Assembly: GCF_021172045.1 (NCBI RefSeq)
Contig: NZ_CP087164.1
Coordinates: 4,340,001 to 4,404,000, forward strand
From: Capillimicrobium parvum
GTDB taxonomy: Bacteria > Actinomycetota > Thermoleophilia > Solirubrobacterales > Solirubrobacteraceae
Length of the DNA stretch: 64,000 nt
Reading direction: 5' to 3'
Below, in pieces: positions 20,985 through 29,675 of this stretch. Numbering within the stretch: position 1 is the first letter of the stretch; each line of letters starts with the position of its first letter. Both the position numbers and the translations under genes were made by a program. The notes below the pieces were generated by a model that was not told where the DNA came from, made no database searches, and saw only the letters and a list, made by a program, of their open reading frames with translations.

Positions 20985-21060
20985 GCGCGGCACGTGCTCG
21001 CTGCGACGGTCGTCGCCCGGGTCCCACACGGTCGCTGAACCGCCTGGGTGGACGGACGTC

Positions 21061-21849
21061 CTACCGCCGCGTCAGACCAAGCTCCTCGATCCAGCCGAAC
21101 GAGTCGGCCGTCGCGGGCGTCGTCGGCCGGTACTCCAGCCCGACGTGCCCCGCGTAGCCGAGCCGCTCAAGCAGCCCGAGCACGTGCGCGAACCGGATCT
21201 CGCCCGTCCCCGGCTCGCCCCGGCCGGGCGCGTCGGCGATCTGGACGTGGCCGATCGTCGGCAGCAGCCGGGCGATCGTCTCCGACAGCTCCCCCTCCGT
21301 GCGCTGCGCGTGGTAGACGTCGTACTGCAGCCGCACGTTCTCCCGGCCGAGCGACGCGATGAAGTCCGCGCATTCGCCGCTGTGCGGCAGCAGGTAGCCG
21401 GGGTTCTCGACCGGGTTGACCGGCTCGATCACCACCCGGATTCCGCGTTGCGCGGCCGCGTCGGCGGCGAACCCGATGTTCTCGCGCGCCGTCGCCAGCT
21501 GGGCGCCGGCGTCGACCCCCGGCAGCGCACGGCCCGCGAGCGCGTTGACCTGCCGGCACCCGAGCCGCTCGGCCAGGTCGAGCGCCGCCGGCACATGCCG
21601 CCGGAACTCCGCGCTGCGCGACGCGTCGTTGACGTAGCCGCGGTCGCCACCGGCAACGTCGCCGGCGTCGAGGTTCATCAGCGCGACCTCGACCCCCGCC
21701 CGCCGCACCGCCTCGCCCAGCGCGCCGTGGTCGAGCCCGGCCGGCCACCACAGCTCGACCGCCCCGAAGCCACAGGCCGCCGCCGCCTCGAAGCGGGCGA
21801 GGAACGGGAGCTCGCAGAACAGCATGCAGACGTTCGCCGAGAACCGCAT
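21061..21849 (-). CDS. hyi: Hydroxypyruvate isomerase-like TIM-barrel protein
   Basis: 262 residues, the usual length. MRFSANVCMLFCELPFLARF at the N-terminus, acidic metal ligands in RVVIEPVNPVENPGY and LQYDVYHAQ, histidine in GHVQIADAPGRGEPGTGEI, and the late Glu in HVGLEYRPT all match the Hyi/xylose-isomerase-like fold. The enzyme interconverts hydroxypyruvate and tartronate semialdehyde; related sugar epimerases share these motifs, so substrate is tentative. No glyoxylate carboligase or reductase gene adjoins it. The start lies 29 bases from the first of the ATGAGTGG palindromes. Confidence 0.82.
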   Translation of the reverse strand: MRFSANVCMLFCELPFLARFEAAAACGFGAVELWWPAGLDHGALGEAVRRAGVEVALMNLDAGDVAGGDRGYVNDASRSAEFRRHVPAALDLAERLGCRQVNALAGRALPGVDAGAQLATARENIGFAADAAAQRGIRVVIEPVNPVENPGYLLPHSGECADFIASLGRENVRLQYDVYHAQRTEGELSETIARLLPTIGHVQIADAPGRGEPGTGEIRFAHVLGLLERLGYAGHVGLEYRPTTPATADSFGWIEELGLTRR

Positions 21850-21877
21850 GGCGCCGGGACTCTACGAGGCCCCAAAG

Positions 21878-21896
21878 ATGAGTGGCCGGCACTCAT
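21878..21896. repeat. 19-bp palindrome family 2, copy A
   Basis: ATGAGTGG-CCG-GCACTCAT, preceded by CCAAAG and followed by GCGC. One of three near-identical copies (also 22293-22311 and 26953-26971). It lies between the hyi start and the broken M23 fragment. Confidence 0.7.
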
Positions 21897-21899
21897 GCG

Positions 21900-22270
21900 C
21901 CGCCGCACCCGCGCGCGCGGACTACACCGGAAACGGCGCCGTGATCCGGATCGCCCCGGGAACGTACGCGATCTACGCGCACCTGCAGCCCGGGACCGTC
22001 CGCGTCCGGCGCGGACAGCGGGTCTCCGCCGGGACGGTCCTCGGCCAGGTCGGCAACAGCGGCAACATCACGGCGCCGCACCTGCACTTCGGCATCCACG
22101 ACGGCCCGTTCCTCGCCACGTCGGCCAGCCTGCCGTGGGTCTTCGACCGCTATCGCCTCGACGGCAGGGGCCCGCTGGGCGAGGACGGCAGCGTCGCGCT
22201 CGCGGGCACGCCGCGGACCGAGCGCCGCACCTACCCGATGAACCTCTCCAGCCTGACTCTCGCGGGCTGA
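21900..22270 (+). pseudogene. C-terminal fragment of an M23 (LytM-like) peptidase
   Basis: The frame carries GNGAVIRIAPGTYAIYAHLQ, then VRRGQRVSAGTVLGQVGNSG and TAPHLHFGIHDG, the unmistakable second half of an M23 metallopeptidase domain with its HxH zinc motif. The first half, including the His and Asp zinc ligands, is missing: similarity begins at about 21917, directly after palindrome copy A. An in-frame ATG at 21824 would have to read through the palindrome and cannot supply the missing part. About 45 extra residues follow the domain. It is probably a non-functional remnant created by deletion or transfer, with palindrome B 22 bases after its stop. Confidence 0.75.
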
Positions 22271-22292
22271 GGCGAGGAAGCCCGGCCGAAAG

Positions 22293-22311
22293 ATGAGTGG
22301 CCGCCACTCAT
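22293..22311. repeat. 19-bp palindrome family 2, copy B
   Basis: ATGAGTGG-CCG-CCACTCAT with perfect 8-bp arms, preceded by CGAAAG and followed by GCGC, as in copy A. It ends 34 bases upstream of the hydrolase start at 22346; an in-frame ATG at 22310 falls in its right arm. Confidence 0.75.
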
Positions 22312-22345
22312 GCGCGGAACCCAGCGGACCGGTTTGCTCGGCGCC

Positions 22346-23869
22346 ATGACGTACCCCGTCCTTCCCGCGGCCGCGGCCGCCGCCGCCCTGATCGCCCTCG
22401 GCCTCGCCGCCCCGGCCGGCGCCGCATCCGTCGCTCCCGGGCCCTGCCCCACGCCGGAGACCCCCATCCCGGCGCTCGCCGGCGCGCGATGCGGGTTCCT
22501 GACCGTTCCCGAGAACCGCACCCGGCTGGACGGACGCACGATCCGCCTCCAGGTCGCGGTCATCCCCGCCCGGTCGCGCACCCCGGCGCCCGACCCGGTC
22601 GTCTACCTGACCGGCGGTCCGGGCGGCAGCGCCATCAGCGCCGTGCAGAACGTCGTGAACGCCGGCGCAAACCGTGACCGCGACCTCATCGTCCTCGAAC
22701 AGCGCGGCACGCTGTACTCCGAGCCGTCGCTGACGTGTCCGGTCATCGACCGCTGGAACTCCCGGGTCGTCGGCCTGCCCTACGACGCCCGGTCGACGGG
22801 CCGCAAGCAGACCGCCGCCACGCGCGCATGCCGGGCGAGCGTCGTCGCCAAGGGGGCCGATCCCGGGTCGTACAACACGACCGAGAGCACCGCCGACTTC
22901 GCCGACCTGCGCGTCGCGCTCGGCATCCCCGAGTGGAACGTGATCGGCGCGTCCTACGGCACCGACCTGGCGCTGTCGTACATGCGCGACCACCCCGAGG
23001 GCATCCGCAGCGTGACGATCGACTCGGCGATCGCCCCCGACCAGGCCGGCACCAGCCTGGCCTGGACGAGCGCCGGCGTCGGCATGCGCCAGATGTTCCG
23101 GGCATGCCGTGCACAGCCGAGCTGCCGGCGGGCCTATCCGCGGCCGGACCGGGTCTTCACCCGGCTCGTGCGCCGCCTGGAAGCGACGCCGATCACCGCG
23201 TTCGTCAAGCCGGCCCTGATCCCCGGCGACAAGCCCGACCCCGGAGCCAGGCGCACGAAGGTGGTGCTCGACGGCGGGGCCTTCGCCAACTACGTCATCA
23301 ACATCACGGGCGCGGGCTTCGGCTCGAAGGTCCCGAAGCTGCTCTACGACTTCGCCCACGGGCGGCGCAAGCCGGTGCTCGCCTCCCAGGCGGCGACCGG
23401 CGCGCTCCACGCCGGTGAGCTGAGCTACGGGCTGCAGTACGGCGTGATCTGCAGCGAATGGATCCCGTTCGAGACGAAGCGCGACGTGCTCCGGCGTGGC
23501 CGGCAGGCGTTCCCCGGGTTCCCGCGGTCCGTCAGGGCCCAGCCGCCGCAGTTCCCCTTCCGGTTCATGGACTGCCCGGTGTGGGACGTTCCGAAGGCAC
23601 CGGACTCGCAGCGCGCGGTGCCCCGGAGCGCGATCCCGACGCTGGTCCTGGCGGGCAGCTACGACACGCTGACGTCGGAGGCCAACTCGCGCCACGCCGC
23701 GTCGAACCTCCCGAGCTCGCGGCTCGTGGTGTTCCCCGGCGAGGGGCACGTGGTGCTCAACACGTCGAAGTGCGCCGGGAGGGTGTTCGTGTCGTTCCTC
23801 GACGCTCCCGGGAGCCCGGACATGCGCTGCACGGCGAATCTGAAGCCGCCGCCGTTCGAGATCGGCTGA
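22346..23869 (+). CDS. Secreted alpha/beta hydrolase with TAP-like C-terminal domain
   Basis: 507 residues from ATG 22346, which begins a signal peptide (MTYPVLPAAAAAAALIALGL, then APAGAAS). ATG 22310, inside the palindrome, is possible but less likely. The oxyanion/substrate loop is VVYLTGGPGGSAIS, the nucleophile elbow NVIGASYGTDLAL, the catalytic Asp in LVLAGSYDTLT and His in PGEGHVVL. Such proteins are tripeptidyl aminopeptidase or proline iminopeptidase relatives that trim peptides outside the cell. Paired cysteines (for example CPTPETP and LTCPVID) suggest disulfides in an exported protein. Substrate unproven. Confidence 0.82.
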   Translation: MTYPVLPAAAAAAALIALGLAAPAGAASVAPGPCPTPETPIPALAGARCGFLTVPENRTRLDGRTIRLQVAVIPARSRTPAPDPVVYLTGGPGGSAISAVQNVVNAGANRDRDLIVLEQRGTLYSEPSLTCPVIDRWNSRVVGLPYDARSTGRKQTAATRACRASVVAKGADPGSYNTTESTADFADLRVALGIPEWNVIGASYGTDLALSYMRDHPEGIRSVTIDSAIAPDQAGTSLAWTSAGVGMRQMFRACRAQPSCRRAYPRPDRVFTRLVRRLEATPITAFVKPALIPGDKPDPGARRTKVVLDGGAFANYVINITGAGFGSKVPKLLYDFAHGRRKPVLASQAATGALHAGELSYGLQYGVICSEWIPFETKRDVLRRGRQAFPGFPRSVRAQPPQFPFRFMDCPVWDVPKAPDSQRAVPRSAIPTLVLAGSYDTLTSEANSRHAASNLPSSRLVVFPGEGHVVLNTSKCAGRVFVSFLDAPGSPDMRCTANLKPPPFEIG

Positions 23870-23927
23870 CCGCGACCCCGGATCGGATGCCGTTCGACGG
23901 CACCGTTCGGTACACATTGCGCGGGTC

Positions 23928-26750
23928 ATGTCCGTCCGTGCCGACCAGGTCGGATCTCTCCTCGACCGCGAGGGCGAGATCGAGCAGATCGCGCAGCTGC
24001 TCGCCGCGGGATCCGGCGGCGGCTACGCGTACGTCGAAGGCCACGCCGGGATCGGCAAGACGAGGCTGCTGCGGGCGGCGCGGAGCCACGCCGCGACGCA
24101 GGGCCTCCGGGTGCTCAGCGCGCGCGGCGACGAGCTCGAGAGCGCCTTCAGCTACGGGGTCGCCCGCCAGCTGTACGAATCGGCGCTGACGGCCGCCGGC
24201 GCGGAGGACCGGCGGGCGCTGCTGGACGGACCGGCAGCCCATGCGGCACCCGCGGTCGGGCTGACGGGTCTGCCGCACGAGCCGATCAGCCCGGATTCGG
24301 CCTTCCCCGTCGTCCACGGGCTGTACTGGCTGACCGTCAACCTCGCGGCGCGCGATCCGCTCATGCTGCTGATCGACGACGCGCACTGGGCCGATGCGCC
24401 GTCCCTGCGCTTCATCGACTACCTCGTCGGCCGGCTCGAGGACACCCCCGTCACCGTCGTGCTCGCCGCGCGCCCCACCGAGCGGGGCGCGCCGGCCCGC
24501 CTGCTCGACCGGCTGCGCGACCATCACCGCCCACAGCTCCTGCGCCCACGCCCCCTGAGCGAGACCGCCACGTGCGCGTTGCTCGAGGAGCGCTTCGACG
24601 CGGTGCCCGATGCCGCGTTCGCCGCCGCCTGCCATCGCGCGAGCGCCGGCAACCCGTTCCTGCTGCACGAGCTCGCCGACGCGCTGCTCGCCGACCGCAT
24701 CGAGCCCACCGAGCCGGCCGCGGCGCTCGTCGCCGACCTCGGGCCCGACACCGTGGCCCACTCCCTGTTCCTGCGGCTCACGCGCCTTCCACCCGAGGCC
24801 GGCGAGGTCGTCGACGCCCTCGCGGTGTTCGGCAACGCCGCCGAGGTCCGTCACATCGGTGCGGTGACCGGTCTCAGCCCCGAGGCGGTCTCCGAGCTCG
24901 CCGACCAGCTCGCGGACGCGAACGTCCTGACCGCCGAACGCCCCCTGCGGTTCGTCCATCCGATCGTCCGCGAGGCGATCTACAACGAGCAGCGGCCGGC
25001 CGGGCGCGCGCGGCTGCATGCCCTCGCGGCCGAGTCCCTCCTGGCCGATGGCCATCCCGCCGCCCTGGTCGCGCCGCACGTGCTGATGACGGAGGCCGCC
25101 GCAAATCCCGCCACGGTCGCGGTGCTGCGCGAGGCCGCCGCCGCCGCGATGGGCCAGGGCGCCCCGGACGAGGCCCGCGACTACCTGCGCCGGGCGCTGC
25201 GCGAGCCGCCCGCCGACGGTGCGCGCGCCGGCGTCCTGGCCGAGCTGGGCACCGCCGAGATGCTCGGCGACGCCGGCCTGGCCGAGGCCGGCGCGCACAT
25301 CGAAGCCGCGATCGAGCTGACCGCGGATCCCGAGCTGCGTGCCCAGCGCGCGCACATCGCCGCCCGGGCGCGTCTGTTCCGCGGCGATCTGCCGGGTGCC
25401 GTCCGGCTGCTCGACGAGGTCCGCTCCACGGTCGGGCCCGACGCCGCCCTGTCGCTCACCGCCCACCAGGCGGCGCTCGGCCTGCTGGCGCCGCCGTGCG
25501 CCGACGACGCCATCGCCCGGCTCGAGGCCTTCACCGGCGTGGCCGGCGACACGCCCGCGCAGCTGATGGCCCTCGCCGAGCTGGCGGGATCGCGCTGGCT
25601 GGACGGCCGGATCGGCGAGGCCGCCGGCTTCGCGGAGCGGGCGATCGCCGGCGGGCGGCTGCTCGCCGCCGAGGGACCGTCCTCGACCGCGCTCAACCAC
25701 GCGCTGCGCGTCCTCATCGACGCGGACCGCTACGACCTCGCGCTCCCCGCGCTCGAGCCCGCCATCGCCGCCGCCCGCGCGCAGGGCTCCGTGCTCAGCC
25801 TGTCGAACCTGCTGTGCCTGCGCGCGGTCGCGGCGTGCCGCCGCGGCGACGTCCTGGCGGCCGAGGACGAGTGCCGCAACATGCTCGAGGCGGTCGATCA
25901 TGCCGACCTCCCCATCGTCCTGCCGGCCCACTACGCCTACCTCGCGCTCGTGCTCGTGGAGCGCGGCGACCTCGGCTCCGCGGAGGCGGCGATCATGACC
26001 AGCGGCTGCGGGCCGGACCTCCCCGCGATGACGTACATGGGCATCGTCTGGCTCGCCCGCGCGCGGCTGCGCCTCGCGCAGGACCGGCCCGGCGAGGCGT
26101 GGGCCGACCTCGCCGAGCTGCGCCGGCGCGACGAGCAGACCGGCGTCCGGCACCTCAGCATCCAGTGGCACGACACCGCGGCCCGCGCCGCGCTCGCCCT
26201 CGGCGACGCGGACGGGGCGCTCGATGTGGCGGACGAGCAGCTCGAACGCGCACAGCGCTGGAACACGCCGTCGGCGCTCGGAGTGGCGCTCGCGACGAAG
26301 GGCCTGGCCGCCGGGGGTGCGCCGGGGGCGGCCCTGGTCGAGGAGGGGATCGCACTGCTGGCCCGCAGCCCGGCCCGCCTCGACCACGCGCGGGCGCACG
26401 TCGACCACGGCATCATGCTCGCGCGCGCGGGCCGGCGCACCGCCGCCCGCGAGGCGCTGCAGGCGGGCCTCGACGGCGCCCGCCGCTGCGGCGCGGCGGC
26501 CCTGGTCCATAGCGCCCACGACGAGCTCACGGTCATGGGCGCCCGGCCGCGCAAGCTGCACTTCAGCGGCGCGGAGGCGCTGACCGCGTCGGAGCGCCGC
26601 GTGGCGCAGATGGCGGCCGCCGGGCGCTCGAACCGCGAGATCGCGGCCGCGCTGTTCGTCACGGTCCGGACGGTCGAGAACCACCTCGCGCACGCCTACC
26701 GCAAGCTCGGGATCGGGTCGCGCCGCGAGCTGCCGTCAGCCCTCGGCTGA
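23928..26750 (+). CDS. Large LuxR-family ATPase regulator (AAA + TPR-like + LuxR HTH)
   Basis: 940 residues. N-terminal ATPase with P-loop VEGHAGIGKTRLLRAARS (about 37-54) and Walker B LMLLIDDAHWADAPS; a helical lid; a long helical repeat region (about 380-860); and a C-terminal LuxR domain: LTASERRVAQMAAAGRSNRE, then LFVTVRTVENHLAHAYRKL. This is the usual large LuxR regulator of actinobacteria, often controlling nearby secondary functions. Ligand and target are unknown; the upstream hydrolase or downstream small gene are candidates. Its 3' end overlaps the converging 64-codon gene by 15 bases. Confidence 0.88.
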   Translation: MSVRADQVGSLLDREGEIEQIAQLLAAGSGGGYAYVEGHAGIGKTRLLRAARSHAATQGLRVLSARGDELESAFSYGVARQLYESALTAAGAEDRRALLDGPAAHAAPAVGLTGLPHEPISPDSAFPVVHGLYWLTVNLAARDPLMLLIDDAHWADAPSLRFIDYLVGRLEDTPVTVVLAARPTERGAPARLLDRLRDHHRPQLLRPRPLSETATCALLEERFDAVPDAAFAAACHRASAGNPFLLHELADALLADRIEPTEPAAALVADLGPDTVAHSLFLRLTRLPPEAGEVVDALAVFGNAAEVRHIGAVTGLSPEAVSELADQLADANVLTAERPLRFVHPIVREAIYNEQRPAGRARLHALAAESLLADGHPAALVAPHVLMTEAAANPATVAVLREAAAAAMGQGAPDEARDYLRRALREPPADGARAGVLAELGTAEMLGDAGLAEAGAHIEAAIELTADPELRAQRAHIAARARLFRGDLPGAVRLLDEVRSTVGPDAALSLTAHQAALGLLAPPCADDAIARLEAFTGVAGDTPAQLMALAELAGSRWLDGRIGEAAGFAERAIAGGRLLAAEGPSSTALNHALRVLIDADRYDLALPALEPAIAAARAQGSVLSLSNLLCLRAVAACRRGDVLAAEDECRNMLEAVDHADLPIVLPAHYAYLALVLVERGDLGSAEAAIMTSGCGPDLPAMTYMGIVWLARARLRLAQDRPGEAWADLAELRRRDEQTGVRHLSIQWHDTAARAALALGDADGALDVADEQLERAQRWNTPSALGVALATKGLAAGGAPGAALVEEGIALLARSPARLDHARAHVDHGIMLARAGRRTAAREALQAGLDGARRCGAAALVHSAHDELTVMGARPRKLHFSGAEALTASERRVAQMAAAGRSNREIAAALFVTVRTVENHLAHAYRKLGIGSRRELPSALG

Positions 26751-26930
26751 CCGCCCGTCGTCGGGGCGCCGGCTGAGCGTTCGCTCGAGCGCCCGCGCCA
26801 TCCCCAGCCAGCCGACGAACGGCTCCGGCATCTCGTCCCCCTCGCAGACGCGCCCGCGGATCGGGTCCGCGTCGGGGTCGACCTCGAGCGTCAGCCGTCG
26901 CGGGTAGTCGCGCAACATCGTCTGCAGCAT
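26736..26930 (-). CDS. Small conserved-type acidic protein (64 aa)
   Basis: 64 residues from ATG 26930: MLQTMLRDYPRRLTLEVDPD, then PIRGRVCEGDEMPEPFVGWL. The pattern LEVDPDADPIRGRV and PFxGWL is one I associate with short uncharacterised actinobacterial proteins found near LuxR ATPase regulators; this is memory, not a search. No membrane segment. Palindrome copy C lies 23 bases upstream of the ATG and the gene diverges from the secreted repeat protein. Function unknown. Confidence 0.6.
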   Translation of the reverse strand: MLQTMLRDYPRRLTLEVDPDADPIRGRVCEGDEMPEPFVGWLGMARALERTLSRRPDDGRSAEG

Positions 26931-26952
26931 CGCTGGTGGCGCCGCCCGCGTC

Positions 26953-26971
26953 GTGAGTGGCGACCACTCAT
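26953..26971. repeat. 19-bp palindrome family 2, copy C
   Basis: Read on the minus strand: ATGAGTGG-TCG-CCACTCAC, preceded by CGAAAG as in copies A and B. It sits in the divergent gap between the 64-aa gene (start 26930) and the secreted repeat protein (start 27147). About 175 bases between it and 27147 hold no recognisable gene. Confidence 0.7.
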
Positions 26972-27146
26972 CTTTCGAGTGGCGCTCCGAACCGCGCCCG
27001 CAGGGCGCCGACGCGCCGGATCCGGGTCTGCTTGCCGTCGGCTTGCCGGCGGCGCCCCACGCGCCCGTCAAGTCCCCGGCAAGCACCGTGCGCGACGGTT
27101 GCCGCCGATGGCATCCCGTCTCTCCTCATTCGAAAGGACGCGCACC

Positions 27147-29675
27147 ATGTCCGTTCCGACGATGGCGAAGGTGGCCGTGGCGGGGCTCCTGGGGGCGCTC
27201 GCCCTGGCCGGCACCGCGCAGGCCGATTCGATCTCGTTCATGCGCGGCGGCGACGTCTGGGTCTCCTCGCCGGACGGCACCCGCCAGGTGCAGCTCACCC
27301 ACGACGGCGGCTACAGCTACCAGTCGCAGGCCGACAACGGCGACATCATCGCGCTGCGCGGCCGGCGCCTGCGGCTCATCGGCCGCGACGGGGCCATCAA
27401 GGCCGACTTCAGCACCCCCGTCTCGGGCGAGCGGACCGACAACACCTCCTCCTACTTCCTCGGGCCGTTCAAGCCGGAGATCTCGCCCGACGGCACCAAG
27501 GTCGCCTACGAGTACCGCTACTTCGAGATCACCAACCACCCGGGCTGCGTCCCCGAGGGCACGCCGAACTGCCAGGACGTGCGCCAGTCCACCGGCATCG
27601 GCTACACGTACTCCGACCGGATGACCGGCTGGGACGAGCCGGGGCTCGGCCGCCAGTCCGGCTGGACCGACCCGTCGTGGATCGGCAACAACACCGTGCT
27701 GATCTCCGACAAGAGCGTGCAGCTCAACCTCGACGCGATGATCGACCACCCGGGCGACGGCAACCAGACGCTCCAGGGCTGGTTCCTCGACGAGAACGCC
27801 TGGTACGTCCGCGACGGCGAGGTCGCGCGCTCCGGCGACAAGGTCGCGTTCGTCACGACGCGTCCGAAGGGCCCGAACGAGGACCTCGACATCGACGACC
27901 AGGTCACGCTCTACAAAATGAACGGCCCGGCGCCGGCGCTGCCGACCCCGTGCTACTCGTACGGCAACCCCGCCGGCGCGTACGACAGCCCGAGCTTCTC
28001 GCCGACCGGCGCGAAGATCGCGTTCGAGGACACGGGCGACCAGACCACGCCGCACCGCATCCTGGCCGGCAACGTGCCGAACATGACCAACGGCTGCTCG
28101 CTGCCGTCCGCGGGCGCGTCGCAGATCCTCAACGACGCCCGCCAGCCCGACTGGGGCCCGGCGAACGTGCCGGACCCGCCCCACGTCGACCAGCCGGTCG
28201 TGACGACGGGCGCCGCGAGCGCGATCAGCGCCACGGGCGCCAAGGTCGACGGCACGGTCGACCCGGAGGGCGCGCTGACGGCGTACCGCTTCGAGTACGG
28301 CAAGACGACCGCCTACGGCTCCACCACGGCCGACCAGGATGCCGGCTCCGGCCAGGACCCGGTCGGCGCCTCGGCGAGCCTGTCCGGACTGTCGCCCAGC
28401 ACGGTCTATCACTACCGCCTGGTGGCGACGAACGCCGCCGGGACGAGCCGCGGCCCGGACAAGACGTTCACGACGGCGCGCGCCGTCAAGCCGGACGCCG
28501 CGACCGCGGGCGCCATCGACGTCACGGCGAGCGCGGCCACGATCAAGGGCACGATCAACCCGAAGGGCTCCCCCACCACGTGGCGGTTCCAGTACGGGCT
28601 GACCGATGCCTACGGCACCGCGACCCCGTCCCAGGACGGCGGCGCGGGCACCGCGAACGTCGCCGTGACGGCGGCCCTGGCCAAGCTCAAGCCGGGCACG
28701 CCGTACCACTACCGCGTCATCGCGATCAACCCGCGGGGCACGGCGGTCGGCATCGACAGGACGTTCACCACGTCGCCGGCGGTCGCGCCCGTCGTGACGA
28801 CCGGGGCGGCGAGCGACATCACCCGGACGGGCGCGCGCCTGACCGGCACGGTCAACCCGAAGGGCCTGGCCACGACGTACACGTTCGAGTACGGCCCGAC
28901 CACGGCGTACGGCACGAAGGCGACCGCCCAGAGCGCCGGGACGGGCGCCACCGCGGTCGCCGCGTCGGCGGACCTGTCGAACCTGACGGCCGGGACCGTC
29001 TACCACTACCGGATCAGCGCGACCAACAGCGCGGGGACGTCGGTCGGCATCGACCGGACGTTCACGACCTCGCCCCCGCCGGCCGCACCGGCCGCGGTGA
29101 CGGGGAGCGCCGCCTACGTCTCGCAGACGTACGCCCAGCTGAACGGCACGGTCAACCCGCAGGGCACGCCGACCACGTACCTGTACGAGTACGGCACGAC
29201 GACCGCGCTCGGCTCGAAGACCGACGAGAAGGACGCCGGATCGGGCACGACCGCGATCAACCGGGTGGCGGAGCTCAACGCGCTGACGCCCAACACGACC
29301 TACTACTACCGGCTCGTGGCGAAGAGCAGCGCGGGCACCACGGTGGGCGCGACGAAGTCGCTGAAGACACTCGACACCACCGGCCCTCTGGCGACCACCG
29401 GCGCGGCGAGCGCGATCACCCGCAGCTCGGCCACGCTGGCCGGGACGATCAACCCGCGGGGCGAGCTCACGAGCTACCGGTTCGAGTACGGCCTGACGAC
29501 GACCTACGGGCAGGTCACGCCGGACGGGTTCCTCTTCGGGGGGACGACGAAGGTCACCGTGTCGGACGCGCTGACCGGCCTGCAGCCGGGCAGGACGTAC
29601 CACTACCGGCTGGTCGCCGAGGGCGAGTCGAGCACCTCGACCGGCGCCGACATGACGTTCACCACCCCCGCCTGA
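27147..29675 (+). CDS. Secreted beta-propeller protein with five FN3-like repeats
   Basis: 842 residues from ATG 27147 (AAAGGA nine bases upstream). Signal peptide MSVPTMAKVAVAGLLGALAL followed by AGTAQA. Residues about 27-340 resemble a TolB/WD40-like propeller (DVWVSSPDGTRQVQLTHDGG, KPEISPDGTKVAYEYRY, PSFSPTGAKIAFEDTG). From about 348 five tandem repeats of roughly 92 residues follow, each with the pattern GTVNPxGxxTTYxFEYG, then YHYRxxAxNxxGT, then TFTT. These are FN3-like and common in Solirubrobacterales surface proteins. No wall-sorting motif or C-terminal membrane helix is seen, so it may be released. A strong hairpin terminator follows. Confidence 0.82.
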   Translation: MSVPTMAKVAVAGLLGALALAGTAQADSISFMRGGDVWVSSPDGTRQVQLTHDGGYSYQSQADNGDIIALRGRRLRLIGRDGAIKADFSTPVSGERTDNTSSYFLGPFKPEISPDGTKVAYEYRYFEITNHPGCVPEGTPNCQDVRQSTGIGYTYSDRMTGWDEPGLGRQSGWTDPSWIGNNTVLISDKSVQLNLDAMIDHPGDGNQTLQGWFLDENAWYVRDGEVARSGDKVAFVTTRPKGPNEDLDIDDQVTLYKMNGPAPALPTPCYSYGNPAGAYDSPSFSPTGAKIAFEDTGDQTTPHRILAGNVPNMTNGCSLPSAGASQILNDARQPDWGPANVPDPPHVDQPVVTTGAASAISATGAKVDGTVDPEGALTAYRFEYGKTTAYGSTTADQDAGSGQDPVGASASLSGLSPSTVYHYRLVATNAAGTSRGPDKTFTTARAVKPDAATAGAIDVTASAATIKGTINPKGSPTTWRFQYGLTDAYGTATPSQDGGAGTANVAVTAALAKLKPGTPYHYRVIAINPRGTAVGIDRTFTTSPAVAPVVTTGAASDITRTGARLTGTVNPKGLATTYTFEYGPTTAYGTKATAQSAGTGATAVAASADLSNLTAGTVYHYRISATNSAGTSVGIDRTFTTSPPPAAPAAVTGSAAYVSQTYAQLNGTVNPQGTPTTYLYEYGTTTALGSKTDEKDAGSGTTAINRVAELNALTPNTTYYYRLVAKSSAGTTVGATKSLKTLDTTGPLATTGAASAITRSSATLAGTINPRGELTSYRFEYGLTTTYGQVTPDGFLFGGTTKVTVSDALTGLQPGRTYHYRLVAEGESSTSTGADMTFTTPA
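28190..29672 (+). repeat. Five in-frame FN3-like repeats (about 276 bp each)
   Basis: Repeat units begin near PVVTTGAASAI, PDAATAGAIDV, PVVTTGAASDI, AAVTGSAAYV and PLATTGAASAI. Each has the GTVNPxG and EYG motifs; units 1 and 3 are most alike. They encode stalk-like domains of the secreted protein rather than a DNA element. Confidence 0.75.

What the first reader, a model, noticed from the sequence alone, without database searches (positions are those of the whole stretch)
21878..26971. Second palindrome family (AAAG-ATGAGTGG-N3-CCACTCAT) in three intergenic copies
Copies at 21878, 22293 and 26953 share the palindrome and 5' flank AAAG. They lie upstream of a hydrolase gene, a small gene and a secreted repeat protein, around the 940-aa LuxR regulator. 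They may be its operators, or a short dispersed repeat.
Basis: partly seen in the sequence, partly recalled or inferred. Interest (0 to 1): 0.6.

Follow-up and report, generated by a model that had tools for sequence, protein, structure and literature searches.

The report
Activator operators beside a LuxR-type regulator
The three palindromes are most likely the binding sites of the large MalT-like regulator encoded between them, each placed at a fixed distance upstream of a promoter for a nearby gene; the kind of system is known, but the DNA sequence, the target genes and a small partner protein seem not to have been described before.

Summary
The three palindromes are real, and they are the only copies within 3 mismatches in the 5.95-Mb genome. 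That excludes a dispersed repeat. The same element (AAAG-ATGAGKGG-N3-CCMCTCAT-G) recurs in other genomes of the order, far above the control. Aligned on its 3' end, the downstream DNA is featureless except for A at +23 (17/20) and T at +27 (19/20), a -10 element nAnnnT, and ATG/GTG at +34 to +36 in 11/20. So the palindrome lies about -52 to -34 from the inferred start of transcription, mostly on leaderless genes. This is class II activator geometry, as reported for MalT in Actinoplanes (PMC7567727). Most of these genomes carry a close homologue of the window's 940-aa regulator beside a site. One weak hit that I had filed as background turned out to have regulator, -10 and leaderless start. In the window, copy 2 drives a secreted alpha/beta hydrolase, copy 3 a 60-aa minus-strand protein of an unnamed GWLGL family, and copy 1 precedes a truncated M23-peptidase remnant. 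Binding and regulation are inferred, not shown.

The parts
21874..21896 (+). Copy 1: AAAG plus 19-bp palindrome, 1 mismatch; decayed promoter in front of the M23 remnant
   Evidence: T at +27 present, A at +23 absent, no start codon at +34 to +36
21918..21923 (+). Position of the -10 element of copy 1 (CGGACT), degenerate
21824..22270 (+). Open frame with the C-terminal part of an M23 peptidase (profile positions 32-89 of 96); remnant lacking its original start and first half
   Evidence: (PF01551, 4.5e-14)
22289..22311 (+). Copy 2: AAAG plus perfect palindrome
22333..22338 (+). Putative -10 element TTTGCT at positions +22 to +27 from the palindrome
22346..23869 (+). Target of copy 2: exported alpha/beta hydrolase (TAP-like), predicted leaderless start at +35
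23928..26750 (+). 940-aa LAL (MalT-like) LuxR regulator: AAA_16 ATPase, MalT-like TPR, GerE HTH; recognition helix RTVENHL
26953..26975 (-). Copy 3: AAAG plus palindrome on the minus strand
26926..26931 (-). Putative -10 element GATGCT of copy 3
26736..26918 (-). Target of copy 3: 60-aa GWLGL-family protein, predicted leaderless ATG at +35
   Evidence: no Pfam match

Best explanation
The palindromes are operators at which the adjacent LAL (MalT-like) LuxR regulator binds, probably as a dimer of its GerE domains, at about -52 to -34 (centre near -43) of sigma70-type promoters that have a -10 (nAnnnT) but no recognisable -35. It thereby activates a small local regulon as a class II activator. 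In this genome the regulon is a secreted hydrolase (copy 2), a 60-aa GWLGL protein (copy 3) and a decayed M23 peptidase unit (copy 1). Shown by sequence: rarity, conservation, fixed spacing to -10 and start codon, and regulator adjacency. Inferred: binding, activation rather than repression, start of transcription, leaderless translation and dimer binding.
For: Only 3 copies in the genome, all within 5.1 kb around the regulator gene. With AAAGATGAGKGG-N3-CCMCTCATG over 399 genomes of the class, all hits with up to 2 mismatches lie in the window's order; the backwards control, counted up to 3 mismatches, gave about a dozen single matches scattered over the class. Among the 13 hits with up to 2 mismatches, A+23 in 11 and T+27 in 13. 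In the 20-site set p = 8e-12 and 8e-17, next best column 9 and 8 of 20; start codon at +34 to +36 in 11/20 against a mean of 1.4 for other bins. The regulator's two best homologues in the family (G081, G113) carry the site just after their regulator gene, although the sites were found by DNA pattern alone. Adjacency also in G020, G175, G031, G170 and one genus-wide locus. In the 3-mismatch class, hits with the -10 signature have the regulator nearby in 4/5 by tblastn, hits without it in 0/10. The recognition-helix residue after the E of RTVENHL is N in 8/8 regulators with a site against 8 of 118 without. Geometry as for Actinoplanes MalT, whose palindrome ends 34.4 +/- 1.0 nt from the TSS (PMC7567727).
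Against: No binding, transcript or mutant data. The 20-site set was compiled by me, and four rows come from one genus (three used). Some sites (G115 C485, G016 C218, G175 C186 and C208, G020 C59) lie on fragments or regions without a regulator nearby; they may be distant regulon members, but that is unproven. Most N-bearing regulators form one clade, so the recognition-residue correlation is confounded by descent. Many other homologues (40-46% identity) have no such site. AAAG on one side only is not explained by a symmetric dimer.
Confidence: 0.87

Rival explanations
1. The sites are bound by another protein (another LuxR paralogue or a repressor), and the adjacent LAL gene is merely a neighbour.
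For: Several sites lie without a LAL gene in the available flank, and the genome has 29 matches to the regulator, a 42% identical paralogue among them.
Against: The two best homologues of this very regulator carry the site at their 3' end. The weak G170 hit also showed a close homologue with the same recognition helix residue. The paralogue has F, not N, in the helix and no site.
Confidence: 0.08
2. Short dispersed repeat (REP/MITE-like) or ends of a small mobile element.
For: Palindrome with an asymmetric 5' tetranucleotide; copies 1 and 2 flank a gene remnant as direct repeats and copy 3 is inverted.
Against: Only 3 genomic copies. Fixed -10 and start-codon spacing in unrelated genomes. No transposase among the genes between the copies. 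In other genomes single copies sit in front of single genes.
Confidence: 0.02
3. RNA hairpin (terminator or leader RNA) encoded by the palindrome.
For: Arms stay complementary while their letters change (GTGG/CCAC, GGGG/CCCC, GAG/CTC); CTTT follows the hairpin on one strand.
Against: It lies upstream of a conserved -10, so it is predicted not to be transcribed from that promoter. No Rfam match. A terminator would need genes ending at the CTTT side, which is not seen for copies 1-3.
Confidence: 0.03

Closest known systems
MalT regulon of Actinoplanes sp. SE50/110 (TCATCC-N5-GGATGA operator; PMC7567727)
   Same: MalT-like LAL regulator encoded within its regulon; palindrome overlapping -35 with its 3' end about 34 nt from the TSS; several local targets
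   Different: Palindrome sequence and spacer differ (ATGAGTGG-N3-CCACTCAT with AAAG on one side). The GATGA-like stretch points the other way within the half-site. Targets are exported proteins and a GWLGL protein, 3 copies instead of 17 promoters
E. coli MalT and the MalT box (GGGGA(T/G)GAGG, as described in PMC7567727)
   Same: Regulator architecture; position next to -35
   Different: MalT box core GGA(T/G)GA is not present as such; no maltose genes among the targets seen here
SCO6993, a LAL regulator of Streptomyces coelicolor (PMC9628970)
   Same: LuxR-type LAL protein binding short inverted repeats
   Different: Negative regulator, sites at other positions, no consensus established

Membership tests
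LAL / MalT-type regulator with its operators | N-terminal ATPase, MalT-like TPR region and C-terminal GerE HTH in one large protein | tested here: met
   AAA_16 7.6e-21 and GerE 5.7e-14 above cut-off; TPR_MalT 1.3e-4 only below Pfam's cut-off
LAL / MalT-type regulator with its operators | Operator overlapping -35, 3' end about 34 nt from the TSS | tested here: met
   Palindrome end to A-11 is 23 nt and to T-7 is 27 nt; start codon mostly at +34/+35; the TSS itself is inferred
LAL / MalT-type regulator with its operators | MalT-box core GGA(T/G)GA | tested here: not met
   Sites read AAAGATGAGTGG...; no GGA(T/G)GA core in the three copies
LAL / MalT-type regulator with its operators | Direct, effector-dependent DNA binding and activation | not testable with these tools
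   Needs EMSA/footprint and transcript data
Leaderless sigma70-type promoter of Actinobacteria | TAnnnT-like signal about 12 bp upstream of the start codon, no Shine-Dalgarno | tested here: met
   nAnnnT 6-8 bp before ATG/GTG in 11/20 sites; definition in PMC3160421. The first T is mostly G or C here
REP / MITE-like dispersed repeat | Many copies spread over the genome | tested here: not met
   3 copies in 5.95 Mb, all within 5.1 kb
Structured RNA element | Match to a described RNA family | tested here: not met
   No Rfam match in 21000-27500

The most novel reading that the evidence does not exclude
LAL regulators of Solirubrobacterales form a widespread module with a small GWLGL protein. The regulator switches on the small gene through its own operator, and the small protein acts back on the regulator as a dedicated co-regulator or anti-activator.
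Probability: 0.3. Interest if true: 0.7.

Novelty: new member of a known kind. Interest (0 to 1): 0.5.

Why it matters
LAL regulators are numerous in actinobacteria, but operators are known for few of them. This gives a full operator-promoter model with base-level predictions (binding site, -10, start codon) for one clade in an order with little experimental work. It corrects gene starts and points to an undescribed small protein family that travels with these regulators.

Tried and rejected
Dispersed repeat, transposon ends and RNA element: rejected (and the spacing). A general rule that every LAL homologue has its own palindrome of this form at -34: a scan of the LAL-homologue and GWLGL-gene loci found no excess of perfect 8-bp palindromes with a -10 at this spacing, so the element belongs to one subset. 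A variant AAAGATCAGGTGCCGGACCTGATG next to another LAL gene (L089) has the palindrome and AAAG but not the -10 spacing, so it is left open. The resemblance of GATGAG to the MalT box was first taken as a lead; orientation and core do not fit. Structure of the 60-aa protein: low confidence (pLDDT 65, pTM 0.28), not used. Paper search for Solirubrobacterales with LuxR, operator and regulon found nothing relevant.

Full report
Observation. The palindrome is present at the three stated places, with 0.10 expected by chance in the window. Written in the AAAG direction the copies are AAAGATGAGTGGCCGGCACTCATGCGC (21874, +), AAAGATGAGTGGCCGCCACTCATGCGC (22289, +) and AAAGATGAGTGGTCGCCACTCACGACG (26975, -). 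The genome is one contig of 5.95 Mb, and a search with up to 3 mismatches finds these three and no others.

Conservation. Searching the palindrome alone in 146 genomes of the family gave further copies that also carry AAAG and lie between genes, together with chance hits. AAAGATGAG-N(5-15)-CTCAT gave 15 hits against none for the reversed control. Over 399 genomes of the class, AAAGATGAGKGG-N3-CCMCTCATG gave 13 hits with up to 2 mismatches, all in the window's order; two genomes (G175, G115) have three copies each, one of G115's at 3 mismatches. Arms change together (GTGG/CCAC, GGGG/CCCC, GAG/CTC), as expected for a symmetric binding site.

Promoter geometry. I aligned 20 sites on the last base of the palindrome. 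The 75 bases downstream are featureless except for position 1 (G, partly selected by the later search pattern; position 2 is C or A), position 23 (A in 17/20, p = 8e-12) and position 27 (T in 19/20, p = 8e-17); the next best columns reach 9 and 8 of 20. A and T four bases apart are the two strongest positions of a -10 element. ATG or GTG stands at +34 to +36 in 11/20, mean of other bins 1.4, maximum 5. TAnnnT about 12 bp before the start codon marks leaderless genes in high-GC Actinobacteria (PMC3160421). With A at -11 and T at -7, transcription starts near +34 and the palindrome covers about -52 to -34. Because I compiled the 20 sites, I repeated the count on all hits without selection: up to 2 mismatches, A 11/13 and T 13/13; 3 mismatches, both in 5/15.

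Regulator. The window's 940-aa protein has an AAA_16 ATPase domain, a weak MalT-like TPR match and a GerE HTH. Its two best homologues in the family (G081 47%, G113 49%) both have the site directly downstream of the regulator gene, and these sites had been found by DNA pattern only. Homologues also adjoin sites in G020, G175, G031 and a locus shared by four genomes of one genus. In the 3-mismatch class, 4 of 5 hits with the -10 signature have a homologue within 1.5 kb by tblastn; of the 10 without it, none. The fifth (G115 C410) has only a fragment that reads like a broken LuxR HTH. The Fisher value printed counted that fragment; with 4/5 the hand-computed value is 0.004. One of the four, G170, I had put into a background set: it has a 48%-identical regulator ending 59 bp upstream, recognition helix KTVENHL, -10 CAAGGT and an ATG at +35.

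Recognition helix. The residue after the E of RTVENHL is N in 8/8 regulators beside a site and in 8 of 118 others (one search used 9/117 and gave p = 2e-8). By alignment from memory this is the position of NarL Val189, a base-contacting residue; this was not checked in a paper. Most N-bearing regulators form one clade, so part of this is shared descent.

Targets. In the window, copy 2 has -10 TTTGCT (22333-22338) and ATG at 22346, the start of an exported alpha/beta hydrolase (PF00561, PF08386; export is read from the N-terminal sequence, no signal-peptide program was run). Copy 3 has -10 GATGCT and an ATG at 26918 on the minus strand, giving a 60-aa protein. Relatives of this small protein stand under the site in G175, G115 and G170, and beside regulator and site in G031. 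The family (F.GWLGL) has no Pfam match; it occurs in 35 of 146 genomes, and 22 of 30 loci examined have a LAL homologue within 1.5 kb. Copy 1 points into an open frame with only profile positions 32-89 of an M23 peptidase, lacks A+23 and has no start codon at +34 to +36: a decayed unit. In other genomes the sites precede apparently exported proteins with FG-GAP, RTX/beta-helix or beta-propeller repeats. The secreted repeat protein at 27147 (+) is on the wrong side of copy 3 and has its own GAAAGGA ribosome-binding site.

Comparison. MalT of Actinoplanes activates promoters through TCATCC-N5-GGATGA ending 34.4 +/- 1.0 nt from the TSS, overlapping -35 (PMC7567727). The geometry is the same, the sequence is not. 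It works like a MalT-type class II activator system; direct binding is not shown, and the MalT-box core is absent.

Limits. No experiment supports binding or direction of regulation. Sites without a nearby regulator in fragmented genomes cannot be assigned. The one-sided AAAG (7 of the 10 sites with the -10 spacing that were found by palindrome alone) is unexplained; it could be an extra contact of the regulator or of RNA polymerase.

Noticed in passing
26736-26918 (-) and loci L232-L261: Small GWLGL protein family without Pfam match, usually next to LAL regulators across the family; function unknown.
   Followed up: partly
21824-22270: C-terminal remnant of an M23 peptidase between copies 1 and 2, lacking its start and first half.
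   Followed up: partly
26976-26982: An extra half-site (GAGTGG on +, CCACTC on -) directly upstream of copy 3; similar extra half-sites near the G020 and G099 sites.
   Followed up: no
L089:4922-4944: AAAGATCAGGTGCCGGACCTGATG between a LAL gene and a divergent exported-protein gene: same layout with changed arms, but no -10 at the usual spacing.
   Followed up: partly
G000:C1:4829380-4832169 (L057): Second LAL regulator, 42% identical, recognition helix RTVEFHL, without this palindrome nearby.
   Followed up: partly
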